Below are positions 1-33,503 of a stretch of 33,503 nucleotides of DNA, piece after piece. Each line of letters starts with the position of its first letter. The first letter of the stretch is position 1. The DNA comes from a virus, in IMG/VR virus record IMGVR_UViG_3300021952_000005, positions 1 to 33,503 of that record, one strand, 5' to 3'. Made by a program: the position numbers and the translations under genes. Under the pieces are notes generated by a model, which ran no database searches, was not told the origin of the DNA, and saw only the letters and a program-made list of their open reading frames with translations.

Positions 1-127
1 ACAGAAGCAGTAACTGTGTTAGTTGTGAAGTTACCGAAAGTTTGAGACACGATGTTTTGGTCTAACTTCCAGTTCATACCGCCTGAATCACGACCCATCA
101 AACCTTTAGTGTATTGGCTAGAGATTT
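1..127. repeat. Terminal direct repeat (assembly overlap), left copy
   Basis: These 127 bases are identical to the last 127 bases of the window. The repeat lies inside the major capsid gene and the reading frame continues across the join, so it marks a closed circle. A length of exactly 127 equals a common maximum assembler k-mer, so it is best read as an assembly overlap and not as a physical terminal repeat of the virion DNA. Confidence 0.95.
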
Positions 128-6425: not shown

Positions 6426-6501
6426 TGGCTGCCTCGGCTGGTCTCGAACCAGCGACCCACAGATTAACAGTCTGTTGCTCTACCTACTGAGCTACAAGGC
6501 A
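6426..6501 (-). tRNA. tRNA-Asn (anticodon GTT)
   Basis: A 76-base tRNA folds fully. The 7-bp acceptor pairs TGCCTTG with CGAGGCA, with one G-U pair. The D arm is GCTC/GAGC with loop AGTAGGTA. The anticodon stem is ACAGA/TCTGT with loop CTGTTAA, giving anticodon GTT. The T stem is GCTGG/CCAGC with loop TTCGAGA. The discriminator is G and the terminal CCA is encoded. It lies between two small protein genes in the same direction, 5 bases after the upstream stop, so it must be cut out of the operon transcript by host RNases. It reads AAC and AAT codons. Confidence 0.97.
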
Positions 6502-7350: not shown

Positions 7351-7653
7351 TTAAGCCTCCTGGAAACAAATATCTTGCCAGCTCATGACTAGATATTTAA
7401 CCCCATCTTCATAATAAGGAAAGTATTTAAGATATTCCTCGCCTCGGTCATCATTCATAGTTCCAAAGCGAACTCTAGCCCCAACCTCAATAGGCATGGA
7501 CTCTCTGCGACCATTAGGGAGCTTTTTGCCAGGGCCAACAGCCACGACAGTTCCCATGTTTTCTACTTCTTTATTGTCAACAATGATGATTTTAGAAAGC
7601 TCACGAACATCAGGTTTGACAACGATTTTGTCTGCTAATGGCTTTAAATTCAT
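7351..7653 (-). CDS. GroES-like co-chaperonin
   Basis: A 100-residue protein with the Cpn10 fold pattern: NLKPLADKIVVKP at the start, GTVVAVGPGKK (34-44), GARVRFG (58-64) and a C-terminal strand KYLVMSWQDI. Host GroES is about 97 residues. The region matching the mobile loop (about 17-30) carries the hydrophobic group III (22-24) that would dock on GroEL, but it lacks the usual Gly-rich context. The protein would cap host GroEL and could help fold the coat protein, as T4 gp31 does. Its ATG overlaps the stop of the upstream gene (ATGA), and GAGGAAGG precedes it. No GroEL partner is encoded in the window. Confidence 0.88.
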   Translation of the reverse strand: MNLKPLADKIVVKPDVRELSKIIIVDNKEVENMGTVVAVGPGKKLPNGRRESMPIEVGARVRFGTMNDDRGEEYLKYFPYYEDGVKYLVMSWQDICFQEA

Positions 7654-8898: not shown

Positions 8899-9412
8899 CG
8901 CTTTGTAATACTGGTCTAATAGCTTTTTGAGTGTCAAGTATGGCAAGCTGAAGTCTTTCATTTTCTGTCCTTAATTTTAGATTTCGGTAAATTACCCCAT
9001 CATGCCATTGCTGGTCTACTGATTTTTCATACAACTCAATCAGTTTTTTAGGCCTGACCCAAATGGGATTGTGTTTTTCTTTAAAACAAAAAGCATAAAT
9101 CAATGGCGCTTCCTCAGAACTAAAGGCTTCCACCATACTTGGGAGCAACTCAATCTCTTTTTTCTTGATATTGTCTGTTCCCTTTACTGCTACTACAAAA
9201 GTCTTGTTTTTTGTATTAATTACATAATCAGGCAAATTTCTAAGCAAAGTGCTTAATCTCCAAAATGCAGGAACACTATTTTCATGCTCATCAAAACCAA
9301 CTCTATGAAATTGAGTGCCACTTTTATTGCAAAACTTCTCAAAAAGGTATTCACCATCATTTTTAATGGTTTTTACCCTTTGCTCATAGGATTGACCGCT
9401 ATTCCCAATCAT
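8882..9412 (-). CDS. Possible PD-(D/E)XK-like protein with altered core
   Basis: A 176-residue soluble protein. Residues 60-79 read like the core of a restriction-endonuclease fold: PD at 61-62, then after about 12 residues FVVAVKGTD, where an acidic residue would be expected two before the Lys. Here it is Ala75-Val-Lys77. The C-terminal 35 residues form a charged helix. If the fold is right, the protein may be catalytically dead or use another residue. It lies among nuclease genes and overlaps the next upstream gene (ATGA). This is a weak family guess. Confidence 0.5.
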   Translation of the reverse strand: MIGNSGQSYEQRVKTIKNDGEYLFEKFCNKSGTQFHRVGFDEHENSVPAFWRLSTLLRNLPDYVINTKNKTFVVAVKGTDNIKKKEIELLPSMVEAFSSEEAPLIYAFCFKEKHNPIWVRPKKLIELYEKSVDQQWHDGVIYRNLKLRTENERLQLAILDTQKAIRPVLQSDDFAR

Positions 9413-9747
9413 ATTGCGCCCTGCCTACGATTACTGGATAAAGTCCTCCAAATATCAATAATGCGCTGCTCATGCTGGCGCTCATTGTCTATTTTTTTAA
9501 ATTGAACATAAGCCTGCAAATGAGCATCCAGGGCATCAGCATATTTTTGGCTTGCTATGGCTTTTTGTTCTCTTTCTGATACACCGCCTTCAGCCAACAA
9601 AAAAGCATGAGCCTTGGCTTGTTTTATGCCTTCTGAAAGATAATTTACTTGCCCTCCTAGGGCAGCATGAAGCTCATTAGTTTCTGCAATCCTTGTAAGA
9701 GCCATTTCAACTCTGTTTTCATCTAATTTATCTAAGTTCATTTCCAT
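9409..9747 (-). CDS. Helical hypothetical protein
   Basis: A 112-residue protein, almost wholly helical by composition, with SEREQKAIASQKYADAL and the end IIDIWRTLSSNRR. I recognise the general pattern (about 100 residues, a SERE..A segment and a closing WR helix) from uncharacterised phage proteins near recombination genes. It overlaps both neighbours by a few bases, so it belongs to the same operon. Function unknown. Confidence 0.7.
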   Translation of the reverse strand: MEMNLDKLDENRVEMALTRIAETNELHAALGGQVNYLSEGIKQAKAHAFLLAEGGVSEREQKAIASQKYADALDAHLQAYVQFKKIDNERQHEQRIIDIWRTLSSNRRQGAI

Positions 9748-9968
9748 TCTCCATATTCATCAGCTCTATTCCCTTTCAACCATTGTTCTTCAAAATCTCG
9801 AATTAATTGCCATGGCAGCTTTTCCTTGTTTTTGTTTAAATATTCTCTAAATTGGGCCAAACCCCATTGCTTTCGCCACATAATGAGTTGGCGAACAGCG
9901 CATTGATGACGATACTTTTCCTCATCCAAATAAAAGCCCCTGTGTTTTAACAATTGAACCTGAATCAT
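9738..9968 (-). CDS. Small hypothetical protein (DUF7696-like pattern)
   Basis: A 76-residue protein from the first ATG (9968); the frame is open further upstream only from a TTG. The pattern YRHQCAVRQLIMWR, then a helix and a closing QWLKGNRADEYGEW matches a small phage family that I believe is called DUF7696 (name uncertain). It overlaps the C-terminal coding end of the Mom-like gene by 47 bases, in another frame. Confidence 0.65.
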   Translation of the reverse strand: MIQVQLLKHRGFYLDEEKYRHQCAVRQLIMWRKQWGLAQFREYLNKNKEKLPWQLIRDFEEQWLKGNRADEYGEWK

Positions 9969-10533
9969 ATTTTTTAGAATCACCTTTTGGATAAGGTTCA
10001 ACTTGATATTTCAAAAGATTTTGCATAATTTTTTTTTGAGTTTTGCTTCCATGAAAATAAACATAACGATGTTTAGCGCTTCTAAAGACCCTGATTAATG
10101 GGTTTTTTCCATGCCTAGAATGCTTTCCTTCAACCCCACCCATATCTGTTCTTTCTTTTGTTGTTCCTGTAAAAAGAAAGTTTGTTGCTTGATAGACATA
10201 ACCTACATGACCTTTGCCAGTATCAGCATAGGACACGACTATGGTTGGTTTTGGAAGTAATTTAATAGAGTTGGCAACCAAAAAACTAGCCTGATTTTTG
10301 CTGTTATCCATTAAACAAACTCGATTTAATTCCAACACTTTGTCTGAATATTCTTTGCCACAAATACCCATGCAAAGAGCTGGAGAAGCTGGTATTCCAT
10401 AAGTGCATACACCCACAAGCTGATTTTCTTCATAAAGACCAAAAGCAAACATAATTTGAGGAATGCGCTTTGCATAATGCTTTTCAAGCAACCAAGGATA
10501 AGATTCTTCATTTTTTATTGGTAAAACTTTCAA
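9922..10533 (-). CDS. Mom-like DNA modification protein (GNAT fold)
   Basis: A 203-residue protein with motifs I associate with phage Mu Mom and its relatives: HYAKRIPQ (19-26), GVCTYGIPAS (41-50), ELNRVCLMD (68-76), VVSYADTGKGHVGYVYQATN (99-118), FTGTTKE (121-127) and KHRYVYFHG (154-162). Mu Mom converts adenine in DNA to N6-(carbamoylmethyl)adenine and blocks many restriction enzymes; it is built on an acetyltransferase-like fold. All central motifs are present, so the protein looks intact. It follows the methyltransferase-like gene directly (adjacent bases), making a likely anti-restriction pair. Family placement is from memory of the motifs. Confidence 0.72.
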   Translation of the reverse strand: MKVLPIKNEESYPWLLEKHYAKRIPQIMFAFGLYEENQLVGVCTYGIPASPALCMGICGKEYSDKVLELNRVCLMDNSKNQASFLVANSIKLLPKPTIVVSYADTGKGHVGYVYQATNFLFTGTTKERTDMGGVEGKHSRHGKNPLIRVFRSAKHRYVYFHGSKTQKKIMQNLLKYQVEPYPKGDSKKYDSGSIVKTQGLLFG

Positions 10534-11086
10534 TTATTTTCCCCATTGCTGGGCCATAGCATCAGCAATTCCTTGATAAGTAATGCTTCTTAATTTCCAT
10601 CTATCTTTACTTGGAGGCATTTTATGAATCCTAGCTTCTCTGCCTTCAACAATATTTGTAGGTTTAAGTAATGGCAAACCTTTGAGCCATAAAGAAGTTG
10701 CTTTAGTTTCGCCATGACCGAACATCCATGGTTGTATTACTTGGTCAGGTTTTCGATAAAGGCTAGACATAATGCAAATAGGGTTTTCTATGGCAATTTT
10801 AGGAATATCAACTTTTGCCAGCATCATAAAAAATGAAGCGCTTGCTTGTTGTCTACCATCCATTCGCTTTGCAGAAAAATGCCTAGCTCCACTTACAGAA
10901 AGGTCTGTGCAAGGTGGATGAGCAATCATTAAATCCCAAGGATAATCAAGAACATCCCTTACATCGCCTTGATAATGAGGCCCAGGAACATCGGTAGGTA
11001 ATAAATCACAACTCATGGCTTCATGCCCCCCCAATGAAGGCATCACGAACTACACCTGAGTATTCACAAGCAATTAAAACTTTCAA
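10534..11086 (-). pseudogene. Cytosine-C5 methyltransferase-like gene, frame broken at a G7 tract
   Basis: Frame 1 starts at TTG 11086 with GGAGG 7 bases upstream and encodes KVLIACEYSGVVRDAFIGG before reaching TGA just after the G7 tract (11032-11026). The other frame continues HEAMSCDLLPTDVPGP to the stop at 10534. Removing one G fuses them into a 183-residue protein with motif I (ACEYSGVVRDAF), motif IV (AHPPC, Cys59) and motif VI (IENP, 99-102), the order of cytosine-C5 methyltransferases, though without a large target-recognition domain. The split could be an assembly or sequencing error, a phase-variable off state, or a programmed slip. An internal ATG (11046) leaves a 170-residue form that lacks motif I. 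Confidence 0.75.
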
Positions 11087-12439: not shown

Positions 12440-12727
12440 ATGGGAATGTCTAGACATGATGCTTACTATGAGCCTGAAGATGACTACATGGATTCTGATG
12501 AACTTCAATCTGAAGTTGCAGACATGATGAAAGACGATGACTATAACCCTTGCAAATGGGGTAATTTCAACGAGGCTTTTGCAGCCACTCAAAACAAAGA
12601 TGACATAGCAGCTTTAGAAGAAATGCTTGAAAAGCGAGACTTTGAAGCTTTAGGTCGCAAACTGTGGAATATGTCCTATGAATATTGGGAAGATTTCGCA
12701 ACTGGCAAAGTAACTGGTCAATATTGA
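12440..12727 (+). CDS. Acidic hypothetical protein
   Basis: A 95-residue very acidic protein (DAYYEPEDDYMDSDELQ, MMKDDDYNPCKWGNF), with a Trp/Tyr-rich end (KLWNMSYEYWEDFATG). GGAGG lies 9 bases before the ATG at 12440; a second Met two codons on is possible. Its acidity suggests a DNA mimic or a partner of a basic protein, but I do not recognise it. It lies directly before the annealing protein gene. Confidence 0.7.
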   Translation: MGMSRHDAYYEPEDDYMDSDELQSEVADMMKDDDYNPCKWGNFNEAFAATQNKDDIAALEEMLEKRDFEALGRKLWNMSYEYWEDFATGKVTGQY

Positions 12728-12738
12728 AAGGGAAAGTG

Positions 12739-13287
12739 ATGAACTACAAAGAACTTAGACAAATTAATGTTAATGAATTTACAGAAAGAAAAGGCAATTT
12801 AACTTATCTTTCTTGGACTTATGCTGTGGACATTCTTCTTCAGCATGACCCTATGGCTACCTGGGAATGGGGAGACATTGTTTACTTTAATGAAACTGCA
12901 ATGGTTTCTTGCTCAGTAACAGCTTTAGGCAAAACAATGAAAATGCAGTTGCCAGTAATGGACAACCGCAACCAGGCAATCAAAAATCCTGATGCAAGAA
13001 AAGTAAGCGACTCACAGATGCGCTGCCTAGCAAAGTGCATAGCCTGTTTTGGTATTGGCTTGTATATCTATGCTGGCTCTGACCTTCCTTCTGAAGCTAT
13101 TGATGAAGAAGCACCTGACTATTCTCAAGAAGCCGATAAATGGGTTCTAGGAATTAGCGGTAGCAAAGACATTGAAGAATTAAAGGAAATCTATGGTGCA
13201 GCCTATAAAGCCCTTGCAAAAGATAAATCAGCAGTTGCTAAGATTTCAGCAGCAAAAGATGCCAAAAAAGCAGAATTGGGAGCTTAA
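12739..13287 (+). CDS. Single-strand annealing protein, DUF1071 / Sak3-like
   Basis: A 182-residue protein with the N-terminal signature ERKGNLTYLSWTYAVDIL and WEWGDIVYF, then SDSQMRCLAKCIACFGIG LYIYAG in two steps, which is the DUF1071 pattern of phage Rad52-like annealing proteins. It would pair complementary single strands made by the adjoining exonuclease. The C-terminal 45 residues are Ala/Lys-rich and helical. The start at 12739 is chosen for AAAGGGAAAG upstream; a frame extending to 12685 overlaps the previous gene. With the YqaJ exonuclease and the SSB-like protein it forms a complete recombination set. Confidence 0.82.
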   Translation: MNYKELRQINVNEFTERKGNLTYLSWTYAVDILLQHDPMATWEWGDIVYFNETAMVSCSVTALGKTMKMQLPVMDNRNQAIKNPDARKVSDSQMRCLAKCIACFGIGLYIYAGSDLPSEAIDEEAPDYSQEADKWVLGISGSKDIEELKEIYGAAYKALAKDKSAVAKISAAKDAKKAELGA

Positions 13288-13336: not shown

Positions 13337-13431
13337 CTTGGGCCGATAAAGTAGCCATTACAGCAGTTGTCATAGCTGCTGTAATTTTGATGACAATAAT
13401 TCGACTAGCAATTAGATTGGGAGGAGTATGA
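13333..13431 (+). CDS. 32-aa single-pass membrane microprotein
   Basis: The protein begins MTWADKVAITAVVIAAVILM and ends RLAIRLGGV. It is one membrane helix of about 20 residues with a basic C-terminal side. The start overlaps the 14-aa frame (ATGA) and the stop overlaps the exonuclease start (ATGA), with GGAGGAG inside its end serving as the exonuclease ribosome site. It is therefore placed like a real coupled gene. No family recognised. Confidence 0.6.
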   Translation: MTWADKVAITAVVIAAVILMTIIRLAIRLGGV

Positions 13432-14063
13432 CAACATTTACAACTGAGGACAGAATTGCTGTGGAACAGCGCAGCTCTGAATGGCATCAGATGAGGCTTG
13501 GAAAAGTAACCGCTTCTAGGGTTGCTGACATTCTTGCAAAGACAAAGACTGGGCCTTCTGCAAGTCGGCAGAATTACCTTATTGAACTAGCCCTACAAAG
13601 AACTACAGGGGTTGTTCAGGAATCTTACTCCAATAGCGCTATGGAATGGGGAACTCAAACAGAACCCCAGGCTAGAGTTGCTTATGAGGTTGCAACTCAT
13701 AACTTTGTTGACCAAGTTGCTTTTGTAGACCATCCAACAATTCCCAACTTTGGTTGCAGTCCTGATGGTTTGGTAGGAGAAGGGCTTATTGAAATTAAAT
13801 GCCCCAACTCAGCAACTCATTGGGAATACTTCAAAGCTAAAGAACCGCCCAAGAAATACTTTATCCAAATGCAGGCTCAAATGGCTTGCACAGGGGCTAA
13901 ATGGTGCGACTTTGTAAGCTTTGACCCTAGGATGCCTGAGCGCAGCCAGCTTTTAATAGTCAATGTCCCAAGGGATGAAACCTTTATTGCAGAGATGGAA
14001 GCCGAAATTAAGCAGTTTTTGAATGAAGTAGAAATAGAAGTAAATTTAATGAAAGGGATGTAA
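13428..14063 (+). CDS. YqaJ-like exonuclease (lambda exonuclease family)
   Basis: A 211-residue nuclease. QRSSEWHQMRLGKVTASR (14-31) is the usual YqaJ opening. Next come AMEWGTQTEPQARVAYE (71-87), then GCSPDGLVGEGLIEIKCPNS, with the catalytic Asp of PDG and the E-x-K, and a final QMQAQMACTG. All expected metal-binding residues are visible and the length is normal. It would chew one strand from double-strand ends, handing it to the annealing protein upstream. GGAGGAG lies just before the ATG. Confidence 0.92.
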   Translation: MTTFTTEDRIAVEQRSSEWHQMRLGKVTASRVADILAKTKTGPSASRQNYLIELALQRTTGVVQESYSNSAMEWGTQTEPQARVAYEVATHNFVDQVAFVDHPTIPNFGCSPDGLVGEGLIEIKCPNSATHWEYFKAKEPPKKYFIQMQAQMACTGAKWCDFVSFDPRMPERSQLLIVNVPRDETFIAEMEAEIKQFLNEVEIEVNLMKGM

Positions 14064-14330
14064 ATGGGAATTAAATATTATTTAAAAACTCCTGTGTCTG
14101 AATACACAGATAAAGATGGTCAGCAAAAAAAGCGCTATCAAACCATTGGAATTGTTACAGAGACCAAAAAAGGCGATTTGATGTTTAAGCTTGAAATGCT
14201 TCCGCTTTTAGGCATGAAAGAAGGCGCTATTTGGGGTTATCTCAATGAGCCTGAAGAAAAGGGCCAAGAAGGGCAAAAAAGCGCTTCATCGCCTGATTTA
14301 GCAACTTTAGAAGATGACCCACCATTTTAA
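14064..14330 (+). CDS. Small SSB-like protein with acidic C-terminal tip
   Basis: An 88-residue protein directly after the exonuclease stop. The first 60 residues look like a compact beta fold (IKYYLKTPVSEY, RYQTIGIVTET, DLMFKLEMLPLLG). The last part is a disordered linker ending EDDPPF, which closely resembles the DDDIPF-type tip by which bacterial SSB binds its partners. This and its place beside an exonuclease and annealase suggest single-strand DNA binding. It is about half the length of ordinary SSB and I do not recognise its OB domain from sequence, so the role is inferred. Confidence 0.6.
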   Translation: MGIKYYLKTPVSEYTDKDGQQKKRYQTIGIVTETKKGDLMFKLEMLPLLGMKEGAIWGYLNEPEEKGQEGQKSASSPDLATLEDDPPF

Positions 14331-14493: not shown

Positions 14494-14697
14494 ATGAACG
14501 ACCATATATGGACTGCTTCAGGAACAGATATTACAATTCGCTGGAGGCTTAATGGCTGGATTCCACCTTCTGAACAGCAGGAATATAGAGATAAATGGAA
14601 ATATTATCAAAATCTTCCTTTGCGTAATTTGGATGACAAAGCTAAAGAGCAATATGAACAAGTAATGCGAAAAGCTAAAGTCTTAAGGATTAAATAA
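14494..14697 (+). CDS. Small hypothetical protein
   Basis: A 67-residue basic protein (begins MNDHIWTASGTDITIRWRLN), followed by a Tyr/Lys-rich helical part. AAGGAG lies 6 bases before the ATG. Its stop codon overlaps the next ATG (TAATG). Function unknown. Confidence 0.7.
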   Translation: MNDHIWTASGTDITIRWRLNGWIPPSEQQEYRDKWKYYQNLPLRNLDDKAKEQYEQVMRKAKVLRIK

Positions 14698-14981
14698 TGG
14701 CAACTAAACTATCTGTGCTTGTGCCTGCAATTAAAGAAAAATCAGGCAAGGTTATCAAAGCCCCAAGTAAAGCTTGGAGTCATGATGAGCTTAAGAAAAA
14801 AGCTGGCAAAGAGGCTAAACACGCAAAGCATGAATTTGAGCTTTCTAATGGTCGAATTGTTACTAGAAAAGTAGCAGCTAAAGTTGCTGAAAAAGCTGGA
14901 GAAGTTCCTAAATCAGTTGGCAAAAAGCTTCATAGCCATGATTTAAGGAAGGCTGAAGGCATCAAAAAGAAAAAAATGTAA
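14697..14981 (+). CDS. Small very basic protein
   Basis: A 94-residue protein with many Lys residues and no acidic clusters (KAWSHDELKKKAGKEAKHAK, KKLHSHDLRKAEGIKKKKM). The HSHDL and SHDEL parts form an internal near-repeat. It could bind DNA or RNA through charge. Overlaps both neighbours by 1 base. Confidence 0.65.
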   Translation: MATKLSVLVPAIKEKSGKVIKAPSKAWSHDELKKKAGKEAKHAKHEFELSNGRIVTRKVAAKVAEKAGEVPKSVGKKLHSHDLRKAEGIKKKKM

Positions 14982-15076
14982 TGACTAATGATGAGGCTAT
15001 GGCTTTCGCAGCAATAGTTATGATTGGCATAGCCTTTATCATTTTATTTTTAATCGGACAAGACAATGACAAATGA
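14981..15076 (+). CDS. 31-aa single-pass membrane microprotein
   Basis: It begins MTNDEAMAFAAIVMIGIAFI and continues ILFLIGQDNDK. The start overlaps the previous stop by 1 base and the stop lies within the next gene's first codons. One membrane helix with an acidic start and polar end, so its orientation may differ from the 27-aa and 32-aa microproteins. No family recognised. Confidence 0.6.
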   Translation: MTNDEAMAFAAIVMIGIAFIILFLIGQDNDK

Positions 15077-15254
15077 ACCAATCCCATTTGCAGGGAATCT
15101 TAAAACCCCATCAGATGATTGTGAAGAAGCCTTTTTTGCGCTTTACCCTGACTTCTTTTATGAAGGCTCTACAGCGCTAACTTTGTGGACTCAAGGCTGG
15201 CAGGCAGCTTTAGATAATGCTGAAAACAAAAAGCCATTAATTCAGCTTATATGA
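15066..15254 (+). CDS. Small acidic hypothetical protein
   Basis: A 62-residue acidic protein with aromatic residues (EEAFFALYPDFFYEG, LTLWTQGWQAALDNA). The WTQGWQAAL segment resembles the helix of short phage proteins of the form W..G(F/W)QA. It overlaps the microprotein before it and the PPK2 gene after it (ATGA), so its expression is tied to PPK2. Confidence 0.65.
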   Translation: MTNEPIPFAGNLKTPSDDCEEAFFALYPDFFYEGSTALTLWTQGWQAALDNAENKKPLIQLI

Positions 15255-16009
15255 GCGACAGCATTACTTGCACAGAAGAAGGCCCTCGCAACTTAATCAG
15301 CATTAAAGAGTTTGAAAAAAAGAAGCATAGCCTTCAGGTTGAGCTTTTAAAATGGCAGCATTTTGTAAAAGATGCTGGTCAAAAGCATATTATTCTTTTT
15401 GAGGGCAGGGATGCTGCTGGAAAGGGAGGAACTATTAAGCGCTTCCTGGAACACATGAACCCAAAATCAGCTAGAGTTGTAGCTTTAGACAAGCCAACAG
15501 AAACTGAGCGCCAACAATGGTATTGGCAACGCTACATCAAAGAATTCCCAAAATCAGGTGAAATTACTTTTTGGGACAGAAGTTGGTATAACAGGGCTAC
15601 AGTTGAGAAAGTAATGAGCTTTGCAACCGCCAATGAAGTCCAAGATTTTTTTAATGAATGTCCTGTTTTAGAAAATCTATGGTCTAAAAAAATAAAAATA
15701 ATTAAATTTTGGCTTGATGTAAGCAAAAAAGAACAAGCAAGGAGATTTAAAGAAAGAGAAAACAATCCATTAAAACTTGGAAAATTAAGCCCAATAGATA
15801 GGGTTAGCCAAGACAAATGGAAAGAGTATAGCCAGGCAGAGGAGTCAATATTTCTCTGCACAGATAACTGGGTAAAAGTTAAATCCGATTGCAAACGCTC
15901 TGCTAGGATAGCTTGTATGCAATATGTTTTATTGAATAATGACTATCCAGGAAAAAACTTGGATAATATTGGAGAGCTAAATCTCCATATCCTCGCTCAG
16001 GGCAGTTAA
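15251..16009 (+). CDS. ppk2: Polyphosphate kinase 2 (PPK2 family)
   Basis: A 252-residue PPK2-domain protein. Walker A GRDAAGKGG is at 52-60, FLEHMNPKSARVVALDKPTE at 65-84, the second active-site motif WDRSWYNRA at 108-116, and the lid region RRFKERENNPLK..KLSPID at about 165-183. All hallmark residues of the single-domain PPK2 family are present and the length is normal, so it should be active. PPK2 enzymes move phosphate from polyphosphate to nucleotides (or the reverse, depending on class). In a phage this would supply nucleoside triphosphates from host polyphosphate reserves. It is the last gene of the rightward operon, coupled by ATGA to the previous gene and followed by a terminator. 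Direction and class cannot be fixed from motifs alone. Confidence 0.9.
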   Translation: MSDSITCTEEGPRNLISIKEFEKKKHSLQVELLKWQHFVKDAGQKHIILFEGRDAAGKGGTIKRFLEHMNPKSARVVALDKPTETERQQWYWQRYIKEFPKSGEITFWDRSWYNRATVEKVMSFATANEVQDFFNECPVLENLWSKKIKIIKFWLDVSKKEQARRFKERENNPLKLGKLSPIDRVSQDKWKEYSQAEESIFLCTDNWVKVKSDCKRSARIACMQYVLLNNDYPGKNLDNIGELNLHILAQGS

Positions 16010-16035: not shown

Positions 16036-16094
16036 AGGGCTTTTTTGGCTTTCGACCTTACAGCTATCAGTTGCCAAATTGATGCCCTTTTTTT
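16036..16094 (+). terminator. Rho-independent terminator of the rightward operon
   Basis: A two-part stem: AGGGC (16036-16040) with GCCCT (16084-16088), and inside it TTTGGC (16044-16049) with GCCAAA (16073-16078). A run of seven T follows (16088-16094). It lies between the convergent PPK2 and endolysin genes and overlaps the last bases of the endolysin gene. Confidence 0.65.
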
Positions 16095-16686
16095 AAGCGC
16101 CTAATATATCCATTGCTTTGTGAATTCGGTTTATGCGGTCATCAAGACCCAAAGTGCCTCCATTGATGCGCTTAGTCATGGTTGTCCAATCTTCAGCTTC
16201 AGCAAGCGCATTTAAGCCCTTTTTATTCCAAAACCAGCCAGCAGACATACAAGCCCATTCAGGCTCTAAAAGAAGCTCAGGATTGCTTGTAAAAGGTTGT
16301 CCTAGGGCATCGCCACATACTTGATAATTTGAGCGCCCTGTGAGCTGTATAACACCTCTACCATGGAAGCGCCAACCATCCCCATCCTGATTATTTCCAA
16401 GGTCAGCTCTACCACCATAAACTTTGTTTGCAATACCTTCAGGATTATTGGCTAATTTTTCAGAAGTTGCAGCATCAAATCGAGAAGGCCATACTCGCAT
16501 CAAAGCTTGTGCGCTGTAATGGAGATTTTCTTCTAATACCTTAAAATTATTAGACTCATGACCGCATTGACCAATAAATGCAGCTTGTCTTTTTGGGGTA
16601 TCAATGCCATATTTGGAAAAAGTGTCATTTAAAGGTTTTAACCATTTAGCATCAATTCCTAATGCTTGTAATTGTTCGTTATTCAT
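16093..16686 (-). CDS. Endolysin, GH19 chitinase-like
   Basis: A 197-residue glycoside hydrolase family 19 domain. CGHESNNF (41-48) carries the first catalytic Glu (44), and LEENLHYSAQ (51-60) a second acidic site. The substrate cleft motif includes GGRADLGN, DGDGWRFHGRG and IQLTGRSNY, followed by the closing region CMSAGWFW. No signal peptide, so release needs a holin. It would cut the sugar backbone of peptidoglycan. It starts within the end of the holin-like gene (8-base overlap). Confidence 0.92.
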   Translation of the reverse strand: MNNEQLQALGIDAKWLKPLNDTFSKYGIDTPKRQAAFIGQCGHESNNFKVLEENLHYSAQALMRVWPSRFDAATSEKLANNPEGIANKVYGGRADLGNNQDGDGWRFHGRGVIQLTGRSNYQVCGDALGQPFTSNPELLLEPEWACMSAGWFWNKKGLNALAEAEDWTTMTKRINGGTLGLDDRINRIHKAMDILGA

Positions 16687-23341: not shown

Positions 23342-23890
23342 TTATTGCTCCTTATCTCTGCGAATACACACAATCATGGTGATTCGCTCATAATTAGTTG
23401 GATTAATTACCCAATGATTAAACTGATTATCAAACCAAAATACATCGCCTGGTTTAGTTTCTAACTGAACTTCATCAAAACAGAACTTTTGACCTGGTGC
23501 GCTAGTAATCTGAATTCCAAACTTTTCATAGCGCCTTGCGTGCCATCCTGGGTCAATATGAGGCTTGCATTCTTTTCCAGCAGGTATTCTAGTAATCAAA
23601 ACACCTCCAAGCTCAACTCCTTCTACCGCCCTAAAAAGGTCATATACCAAGGGTTTGATGCCTAAAATATCAGCAGATGGATACCATTTTGAATCATGAG
23701 GTTCACCATTTTCGGCATATTCAACCTCACCAAATCGAGGCCAAATGTCATCTAAACCATAATGAGGGCTTGATTCATCCTTTGTTCTAGCATTATGTTG
23801 ATTCCATAGCTCAGGATTTTGCAAAATAGCCCAATAAATAGGGGCTACATTTGCTCCTTGAGAAATCAATTTAATAGGACTATTTTCCAA
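23342..23890 (-). CDS. 2OG-Fe(II) oxygenase-like, Asp/Asn beta-hydroxylase type
   Basis: A 182-residue protein with the double-stranded beta-helix motif H111-x-D113 (KPHIDPGWH), distal His159 (FNHWVIN) and Arg169 (NYERIT), the iron and 2-oxoglutarate ligands of aspartyl/asparaginyl beta-hydroxylase-like enzymes. All are present, so it may be active. Its place within the virion gene cluster, coupled to a cupin gene (11-base overlap), is unusual. The substrate may be a virion or host protein, or a small molecule; nothing in the sequence decides. Confidence 0.8.
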   Translation of the reverse strand: MENSPIKLISQGANVAPIYWAILQNPELWNQHNARTKDESSPHYGLDDIWPRFGEVEYAENGEPHDSKWYPSADILGIKPLVYDLFRAVEGVELGGVLITRIPAGKECKPHIDPGWHARRYEKFGIQITSAPGQKFCFDEVQLETKPGDVFWFDNQFNHWVINPTNYERITMIVCIRRDKEQ

Positions 23891-24230
23891 TCAAAACCTC
23901 ATCTATTTTTTCAATATCTGTTTCATCAGTCGCATGAATACAGAACCAAACACAGTCCTCTAAAGACTCAATTTGATGGTAGGTATTAGCCTCTATATTG
24001 ATGCAAGCAGGAGCAACATACTCTTTATTATAAGCCTCGGTCTTAAGAATTACACGACCTTTTGCAAGAATACTTAAGTGAGAATAAGGATGAGAATGAG
24101 AATAAGCAACATAGCCAGCAGGCATAATCATTTCTTTGGCATATAAACCATCAGAAAAGTTGTGCTTAGTCTGTGGGTCAAAATCCCATTTACCCTCAAC
24201 TTCTTTAAATTGTTCTTCAAAATTAGACAT
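23880..24230 (-). CDS. Small cupin protein
   Basis: A 116-residue single-cupin domain from ATG 24230. The motif YSHSHPYSHLSILAKGRVIL (43-62) gives His45, His47 and His51, and YHQIES gives His85 in the second half, a metal-binding set. The longer frame to 24263 uses a weak start inside the previous gene. It overlaps the previous stop by 8 bases and the oxygenase start by 11. It could serve with the oxygenase as an enzyme or ligand-binding pair. Confidence 0.75.
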   Translation of the reverse strand: MSNFEEQFKEVEGKWDFDPQTKHNFSDGLYAKEMIMPAGYVAYSHSHPYSHLSILAKGRVILKTEAYNKEYVAPACINIEANTYHQIESLEDCVWFCIHATDETDIEKIDEVLIGK

Positions 24231-24462
24231 TGTAATAAGGCACTTTATATATTTTTCCGTCAACTGTCATTTCAATAAAACCAACAGGATTTGATGGCAA
24301 AACAGCTCCTCCTTTGCTTGCAGAAGGAGAAGTTTTTGTAAAATTTAAAAGGTTCAAAAACCATACTTGCCATGCCCTTGTAGGCATTTTAGTGTTTTCA
24401 TCAAGCAAAGGGGTTTGCGGATAAGGATTATCCTGACTTGGCCCCCATATCTGATTTGCCAT
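24223..24462 (-). CDS. Small virion-region protein
   Basis: A 79-residue protein with PTRAWQVWFLNLLNF (27-41) and an end TVDGKIYKVPYYNV. Short proteins with a TRAW.....L segment and a final G..YK.PYY strand are frequent next to tail accessory genes in P22-like phages; their role is unknown. Its ATG overlaps the stop of the gp10-like gene by one base. Confidence 0.68.
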   Translation of the reverse strand: MANQIWGPSQDNPYPQTPLLDENTKMPTRAWQVWFLNLLNFTKTSPSASKGGAVLPSNPVGFIEMTVDGKIYKVPYYNV

Positions 24463-32793: not shown

Positions 32794-33503
32794 TTACGCT
32801 GCTACTCGGCAAGCCAACTCAGGGTAGAGTGGGGCCCAACCATACAGCACATCAACACGAGTAGGAATAGAGTCATTGTTAATGGTGTATTGACGAACTA
32901 CACGCATTGACAGACCGATTTCCTTGTCTGATGCACGACCAGCGAAATGAACACCTTCAGGCAACTCAAGGTCAGCCATAGCCATTGTGTAAGCATTGCG
33001 ATGCATAACAATGTTCTGTGGAGAAACAACACCATTACCGCTTGCATTGTATTGTGATGCAAAGAAAGTAACAGCAGAAGCGCCTGCGCTAGGAATGCTC
33101 ACATTTTGGAACTGACCAGCAGAAATAATCGCTGGAGAAACAGTTACAGAAACAGAGCTACCTGAAGCAACAGAAACAGCTTGCTTAACTACGAATGAAC
33201 GCAGTTTGTTTGTGCCATAAGCTTGACGATTTTGTGGGTTAACTGCATAAACACCAGCAATAGTGAAAGTATCACCAGCATTCAAATTGATTGTGCCAGT
33301 ATTAGCAGCAGTCAAAGTGATAGTAGAGCTAGAAGCCCAACCGCTAGTCAAAATGCCACCAGTTGTAGAGGTGTTAACAGAAGCAGTAACTGTGTTAGTT
33401 GTGAAGTTACCGAAAGTTTGAGACACGATGTTTTGGTCTAACTTCCAGTTCATACCGCCTGAATCACGACCCATCAAACCTTTAGTGTATTGGCTAGAGA
33501 TTT
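32794..33503 (-). CDS. Major capsid protein, P22 coat type, C-terminal part
   Basis: This is the 3' part of the gene that begins at 689. The last 127 bases duplicate positions 1-127, so the unique coding part ends at 33376. Residues include LDQNIVSQTFGN, a beta-rich insertion-type region (TLTAANTGTINLNAGDTFTI, AVNPQNRQAYGTNKLRSFVV) and the end VLYGWAPLYPELACRVAA. The NAGDTFTIAG.YAVNP segment is typical of P22-type coat proteins in related phages. A strong terminator follows 6 bases after the stop. Confidence 0.9.
   Translation of the reverse strand, partial: ISSQYTKGLMGRDSGGMNWKLDQNIVSQTFGNFTTNTVTASVNTSTTGGILTSGWASSSTITLTAANTGTINLNAGDTFTIAGVYAVNPQNRQAYGTNKLRSFVVKQAVSVASGSSVSVTVSPAIISAGQFQNVSIPSAGASAVTFFASQYNASGNGVVSPQNIVMHRNAYTMAMADLELPEGVHFAGRASDKEIGLSMRVVRQYTINNDSIPTRVDVLYGWAPLYPELACRVAA
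33377..33503. repeat. Terminal direct repeat (assembly overlap), right copy
   Basis: Identical to bases 1-127. Together the two copies show that the sequence closes into a circle of 33,376 unique bases. Confidence 0.95.

What the first reader, a model, noticed from the sequence alone, without database searches (positions are those of the whole stretch)
15251..16009. Intact PPK2 polyphosphate kinase in a small phage
All PPK2 hallmark motifs are present (GRDAAGKGG, WDRSWYNRA, the RRFKEREN lid) and the gene is coupled to the recombination operon, which lacks any other nucleotide metabolism gene. It implies the phage draws on host polyphosphate to refill NTP/dNTP pools, or changes polyphosphate stress signalling. 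A 759-base metabolic gene in a 33-kb genome must carry real benefit.
Basis: partly seen in the sequence, partly recalled or inferred. Interest (0 to 1): 0.72.

Follow-up and report, generated by a model that had tools for sequence, protein, structure and literature searches.

The report
Phage-borne class I polyphosphate kinase
This small complete bacteriophage genome carries an intact gene for an enzyme that probably recharges nucleotides using the host's stored polyphosphate; the gene belongs to a virus-only branch of a known enzyme family, shared by phages of at least two unrelated kinds.

Summary
Window 15251-16009 (+) encodes a full-length PPK2 (Pfam E 6e-74). Catalytic residues checked against the solved Francisella enzyme are kept, as is the class I signature Asn; the AlphaFold2 model matches FtPPK2 (TM 0.91/0.95). 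The window is a complete phage genome (127-bp terminal repeat, coat gene open across the join). The gene overlaps the stop of a 62-aa ORF by ATGA, at the end of a Sak/YqaJ recombination gene run.

Added here: (1) it belongs to a virus-only class I clade (100/99-100), not found in a pattern scan of 84,980 prokaryote species, under purifying selection (dN/dS 0.03-0.13); (2) the clade replaces a lid Trp, present in 54 of 54 non-clade class I and related sequences compared, with Gly; (3) it occurs in two unrelated phage kinds, both times among replication/recombination genes and near a Lys-rich 94-aa gene, although the two genes have different histories; (4) it is accessory: 7 of 51 relatives have it at this slot.

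Most likely it uses host polyphosphate to turn NDPs into NTPs; activity, direction and benefit are untested. Virus-encoded ppk2 is already reported, so this is a new member of a known kind.

The parts
15251..16009 (+). PPK2 class I (polyphosphate:NDP phosphotransferase), 252 aa; Walker A D54/K58, Walker B D109/R110, class I signature N114, lid R165/R169/K175, polyP pocket H68/K215/R219; lid position 177 is Gly where non-clade class I enzymes have Trp
   Evidence: Pfam, NCBIfam, PDB sequence and fold matches, residue check, tree
15066..15254 (+). 62-aa ORF (g62); its stop overlaps the PPK2 start by 4 bases (ATGA); core gene of the phage lineage, no family match
14697..14981 (+). 94-aa Lys-rich protein (g94K), found near every PPK2 of the virus clade whose flank is visible; unknown function
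14494..14697 (+). 67-aa ORF, conserved in the lineage
14064..14330 (+). 88-aa ORF, weak match to phrog_18187 (unknown function)
13428..14063 (+). YqaJ/RecE-like recombination exonuclease
12685..13287 (+). Sak-type single-strand annealing protein (start codon of the listed ORF uncertain)
12440..12727 (+). 95-aa ORF at the head of the + strand run, conserved in the lineage
16093..16686 (-). GH19-type endolysin, convergent with PPK2; right border of the variable slot

Best explanation
The gene makes a catalytically intact class I PPK2. Most likely it is expressed with the phage recombination/replication genes and transfers the terminal phosphate of host polyphosphate to nucleoside diphosphates (ADP, GDP, possibly other NDPs/dNDPs), so that energy and DNA/RNA precursor pools hold up while the phage replicates. 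Shown: the family, the class I signature, intact active-site residues, fold by prediction, gene neighbourhood, purifying selection, virus-only clade. Inferred: expression, activity, direction towards NTP, and benefit through nucleotide supply.
For: Best NCBIfam model is TIGR03707 PPK2_P_aer (288 bits, just under its 301.8 cut-off). The residues reported for FtPPK2 (D62, K66, H76, D117, R118, R174, R178, K184, K228, R232; PMC4748334) are all identical; only K229 is changed, to Arg. The class I signature Asn after Walker B (PMC8776046) is present as N114. Predicted fold: pLDDT 88, TM 0.91/0.95 to 5llb, rmsd 1.2 A. Characterised class I enzymes favour NDP phosphorylation, and some also take CDP, UDP and dTDP (PMC8776046). 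The gene lies among recombination genes here and next to DNA polymerase, exonuclease, helicase and primase genes in the second phage kind. dN/dS 0.03-0.13. 299 of 398 Pseudomonadota genomes sampled encode a PPK2 relative, so a polyphosphate-bearing host is plausible.
Against: No assay. One class I enzyme (C. glutamicum) prefers polyphosphate synthesis and PA2428 makes polyphosphate with ATP regeneration (PMC8776046), so sequence does not fix direction. The virus clade has a fixed lid Trp-to-Gly change, and most window-lineage members also lack four residues before W207, which could alter specificity. The gene is absent from 44 of 51 relatives. The host is unknown.
Confidence: 0.6

Rival explanations
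1. Same reaction direction, different benefit: consuming polyphosphate removes a host stress effector or phosphate/Mg2+ store (for example relieving polyphosphate-dependent stress responses), and the NTP gain is incidental.
For: Consistent with the same intact active site. The gene is accessory, as expected for a host-state-dependent benefit.
Against: Position among replication and recombination genes in two unrelated phage kinds fits nucleotide supply more directly. No stress-related partner was recognised.
Confidence: 0.18
2. The enzyme runs mainly towards polyphosphate synthesis from ATP/GTP, raising polyphosphate or lowering NTP to change host physiology.
For: PPK2 is reversible, and some class I enzymes synthesise polyphosphate strongly (PMC8776046). 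The lid change in the virus clade could shift preference.
Against: Most characterised class I enzymes favour NDP phosphorylation (same source). Draining NTPs early in infection is hard to reconcile with a place in the replication gene block.
Confidence: 0.12
3. The protein works mainly with its companion g94K (Lys-rich, basic), for example as a polyphosphate- or nucleic-acid-associated complex, and pool refill is secondary.
For: g94K lies near PPK2 in 32 of 33 virus-clade loci, in two different arrangements; the exception is cut off by its contig end. PPK2 and g94K have different histories yet stay neighbours.
Against: g94K is common without PPK2: 73 of the 80 best g94K loci lack it. A shared insertion hotspot explains the adjacency equally well.
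Confidence: 0.07
4. Passenger gene or host contamination without function in the phage.
For: Some other IMG/VR PPK2 loci (L054-L057) fall among bacterial sequences in the tree and may be host DNA.
Against: Complete phage genome; same slot in several independent contigs; virus-only clade; dN/dS 0.03-0.13; no active-site loss in any clade member.
Confidence: 0.03

Closest known systems
Francisella tularensis PPK2 (class I, PDB 4YEG/5LL0/5LLB)
   Same: 51% structure-aligned identity, TM 0.91/0.95, rmsd 1.2 A; catalytic and polyP-pocket residues kept
   Different: Bacterial and chromosomal; lid KQWK instead of KLGK; four extra residues before the conserved Trp (W207 in the window); K229 instead of Arg
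Sinorhizobium meliloti PPK2 SMc02148 (class I, PDB 3CZQ/6DZG)
   Same: Same class I signature Asn and fold, TM 0.91
   Different: 41% identity; has an N-terminal extension over the lid (PMC4748334) that the phage protein lacks
PPK2 genes of 635-735 kb uncultured phages (LR745206, LR756501, LR756502)
   Same: Phage-borne class I-like PPK2 with the Asn signature
   Different: 38-45% identity, keep the lid Trp (KYWKFSP), 20-fold larger genomes; probably separate acquisitions
Virus-encoded ppk1/ppk2 reported as auxiliary metabolic genes (PMC13188868 and the works it cites, e.g. Li et al. 2025 Water Res 268:122678)
   Same: Same idea: viral contigs carrying ppk2, some transcribed
   Different: Those reports list genes from contigs; the parts read here describe no virus-only clade, lid change or slot. 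The Water Research paper and the supplements could not be read

Membership tests
PPK2 (PF03976) | Match to the family profile over its length | tested here: met
   E 6.1e-74, residues 19-232 to profile 5-223 of 229
PPK2 (PF03976) | Walker A with catalytic Asp and Lys, Walker B DRS, lid R-x2-3-R | tested here: met
   D54, K58, D109, R110, R165, R169; invariant in the virus clade
PPK2 class I | Asn as the class signature after Walker B (class II Gly, class III Glu) | tested here: met
   N114; all virus-clade rows have Asn; rule from PMC8776046
PPK2 class I | Groups with characterised class I enzymes in a tree | tested here: met
   Falls with FtPPK2 and Pseudomonadota class I, apart from class II-like Gly-signature rows; class III sequences were not in the tree, but class III structures are much further away in fold search
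PPK2 class I | NCBIfam TIGR03707 score at or above the curated cut-off | tested here: not met
   288.4 bits against 301.8: clearly best model, just under the equivalog threshold, so equivalence to the P. aeruginosa enzyme is not asserted
PPK2 class I | Polyphosphate-dependent phosphorylation of NDP, little or none of AMP | not testable with these tools
   Needs an enzyme assay
Thymidylate kinase (same superfamily, used as a name for a similar viral protein) | Closer to dTMP kinases than to PPK2 | tested here: not met
   The only strong viral fold match is a protein named 'thymidylate kinase' that is itself PPK2-like (TMq 0.91, 39%); other viral hits have TMq below 0.5; top PDB matches listed are all PPK2
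Auxiliary metabolic gene of a phage | Lies in a genuine phage genome, not in host flank | tested here: met
   Complete genome with portal, terminase, scaffold, coat, tail and lysis genes

The most novel reading that the evidence does not exclude
A phage-specific PPK2 subfamily, adapted by a fixed lid Trp-to-Gly change, that works in the phage replication gene block together with a small basic partner (g94K) and is passed between unrelated phages; its specificity or direction may differ from bacterial class I enzymes (for example towards dNDPs).
Probability: 0.25. Interest if true: 0.68.

Novelty: new member of a known kind. Interest (0 to 1): 0.45.

Why it matters
If active, a phage would be drawing on the host's inorganic polyphosphate store to charge nucleotides, a route not covered by the usual phage nucleotide genes (ribonucleotide reductase, thymidylate synthase, nucleotide kinases). 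Because the gene sits in one variable slot and relatives with and without it exist, the effect of a single acquired gene on burst size in polyphosphate-rich and polyphosphate-free hosts could be measured. The fixed lid change gives a specific residue for biochemists to examine.

Tried and rejected
An obligatory PPK2-g94K pair was considered when g94K appeared beside PPK2 in phages that share few other genes, then rejected: g94K is common without PPK2 and the two genes have different histories. Host identification from the portal, terminase, endolysin and exonuclease failed: matches were to phages of many hosts or to unassigned spring-water phages, and a portal search in one small bacterial family found nothing, which shows nothing. 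A defence-system reading was not supported (PADLOC: no match for PPK2, g94K or g62; one weak Cas8f hit for ORF 9409-9747, E 0.008, taken as chance). Moraxella phage Mcat6 has a 52% PPK2 in an unannotated stretch; it groups with bacterial rows in the tree, so it may be host flank. A promoter/terminator scan around the operon was no better than shuffled sequence. PMC12106651 (LucaPCycle) was not held; PMC10987575 lists phage ppx and ppa but no ppk.

Full report
Check of the observation. The ORF 15251-16009 (+) is present, 252 aa, with an ATG start. Pfam gives PPK2 at E 6.1e-74. NCBIfam's best model is TIGR03707 at 288 bits, just under its 301.8 cut-off. Among solved structures the best sequence match is Francisella tularensis PPK2, E 4e-75. 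PHROGs has no family for it.

Is it a real phage gene? The window has an exact 127-bp direct terminal repeat, and the coat gene stays open when the ends are joined, so the genome is complete at about 33,376 bp with 39% GC. It has portal, terminase, scaffold, head-closure, tail fibre and lysis genes. The nearest deposited phages are two genomes from Manatee Spring, at 65-70% identity in terminase and portal, and these lack a detectable PPK2.

Residues. Aligned with FtPPK2, the reported active-site and polyphosphate-pocket residues are kept: D54, K58, H68, D109, R110, R165, R169, K175, K215, R219; only K229 is replaced, by Arg (roles from PMC4748334). The residue that marks class I, Asn after Walker B, is N114 (rule from PMC8776046). 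The AlphaFold2 model from 25 sequences has mean pLDDT 88 and aligns to FtPPK2 with substrate analogue at TM 0.91/0.95 and rmsd 1.2 A; class II and III structures follow at lower scores.

A virus-only clade. Scans of viral contigs gave 37 loci. In a maximum-likelihood tree, the window's sequence groups with viral sequences only, at 100/100, on a stem of 0.8 changes per site beside Pseudomonadota class I enzymes. Without the long-branch rows the 20 remaining viral rows are one clade at 100/99. A pattern scan of 84,980 prokaryote species found no member; the best was 52% identical. This scan relied on two short exact patterns, so members such as L027 or L053 would have been missed. The best hit among 398 Pseudomonadota genomes is 59% and falls with bacteria. 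All 22 distinct clade sequences, and the long-branch viral row L058, have Gly at a lid position that is Trp in 54 of 54 class I and related sequences and Phe in five class II-like ones. Large phages of 635-735 kb also carry PPK2 but keep the Trp. Most window-lineage members also lack four residues before W207.

Selection. Pairwise dN/dS in the clade is 0.03-0.13 where dS is not saturated; several pairs have dS above 1, so those values are rough.

Neighbourhood. In the window lineage the gene lies between a 62-aa ORF (g62), whose stop it overlaps by ATGA, and a convergent endolysin. The same junction in relatives holds a 55-63-aa ORF or an HNH-like ORF, mostly with the same 4-base overlap. In the set fetched by the neighbouring gene g94K, 7 of 51 contigs with both borders have PPK2 there. 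That set is the best 80 of 149 g94K matches and includes contig duplicates, so the fraction is approximate. One lineage member, L044, has a PPK2 of the other subclade (80% to L035, 64% to the window) while its other genes match the window lineage: the slot has been refilled or exchanged.

Second phage kind. In L027, L032, L037, L042, L047, L059 and others PPK2 lies among DNA polymerase, exonuclease, helicase or primase genes, immediately upstream of g94K. In 32 of 33 clade loci g94K is within about 0.8 kb; in the exception, L051, PPK2 is at the contig edge. PPK2 and g94K histories differ. The repeated adjacency suggests either a working partnership or a shared insertion hotspot; these data do not decide. 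Five of 14 g94K members match phrog_839, a family of unknown function.

How it most likely works. Class I PPK2 enzymes move the terminal phosphate of polyphosphate onto NDPs; some accept pyrimidine NDPs and dTDP, and some make polyphosphate instead (PMC8776046). Given the intact site and the place in replication and recombination gene blocks in two phage kinds, recharging NDPs during phage replication is the best-supported reading. Activity, direction and benefit are inferred.

Novelty. Virus-encoded ppk1 and ppk2, some transcribed, were reported before (PMC13188868, citing Li et al. 2025 Water Research among others), so the kind is known. The virus-only clade, its lid change and the two gene contexts were not found described in the papers that could be read; absence from the searches made here is weak evidence, since most subscription papers are not held.

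Noticed in passing
window 9922-10533 (-): Mom-like DNA modification protein (Pfam Mom E 8e-37; phrog_1384), next to a DNA methyltransferase-like ORF at 10534-11046: the phage probably modifies its DNA.
   Followed up: partly
window 14697-14981 (+): g94K, a Lys-rich 94-aa protein with at least 149 relatives in viral contigs and no hit in the deposited phage collection; some members match phrog_839 (unknown).
   Followed up: partly
window 7351-7653 (-): GroES-like co-chaperonin in a 33-kb phage (Cpn10 E 2e-11).
   Followed up: no
window 23342-24263 (-): An Asp/Asn beta-hydroxylase-like ORF and a cupin-like ORF inside the tail gene block.
   Followed up: no
window 6426-6501 (-): Single tRNA-Asn(GTT) gene.
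   Followed up: no
window 1-127 and 33377-33503: Exact 127-bp direct terminal repeat; the coat gene runs across the join, so the record is a complete genome.
   Followed up: yes
L129 and L133, downstream of g94K: g94K next to structural genes and followed by a Dps-like ORF (judged by eye), with no PPK2.
   Followed up: no
L014-L019 and L025 (Bacteroidota), second ORF after PPK2: A tandem PPK2 paralogue with an altered Walker A (HGGDxSEKS), which may be inactive.
   Followed up: no
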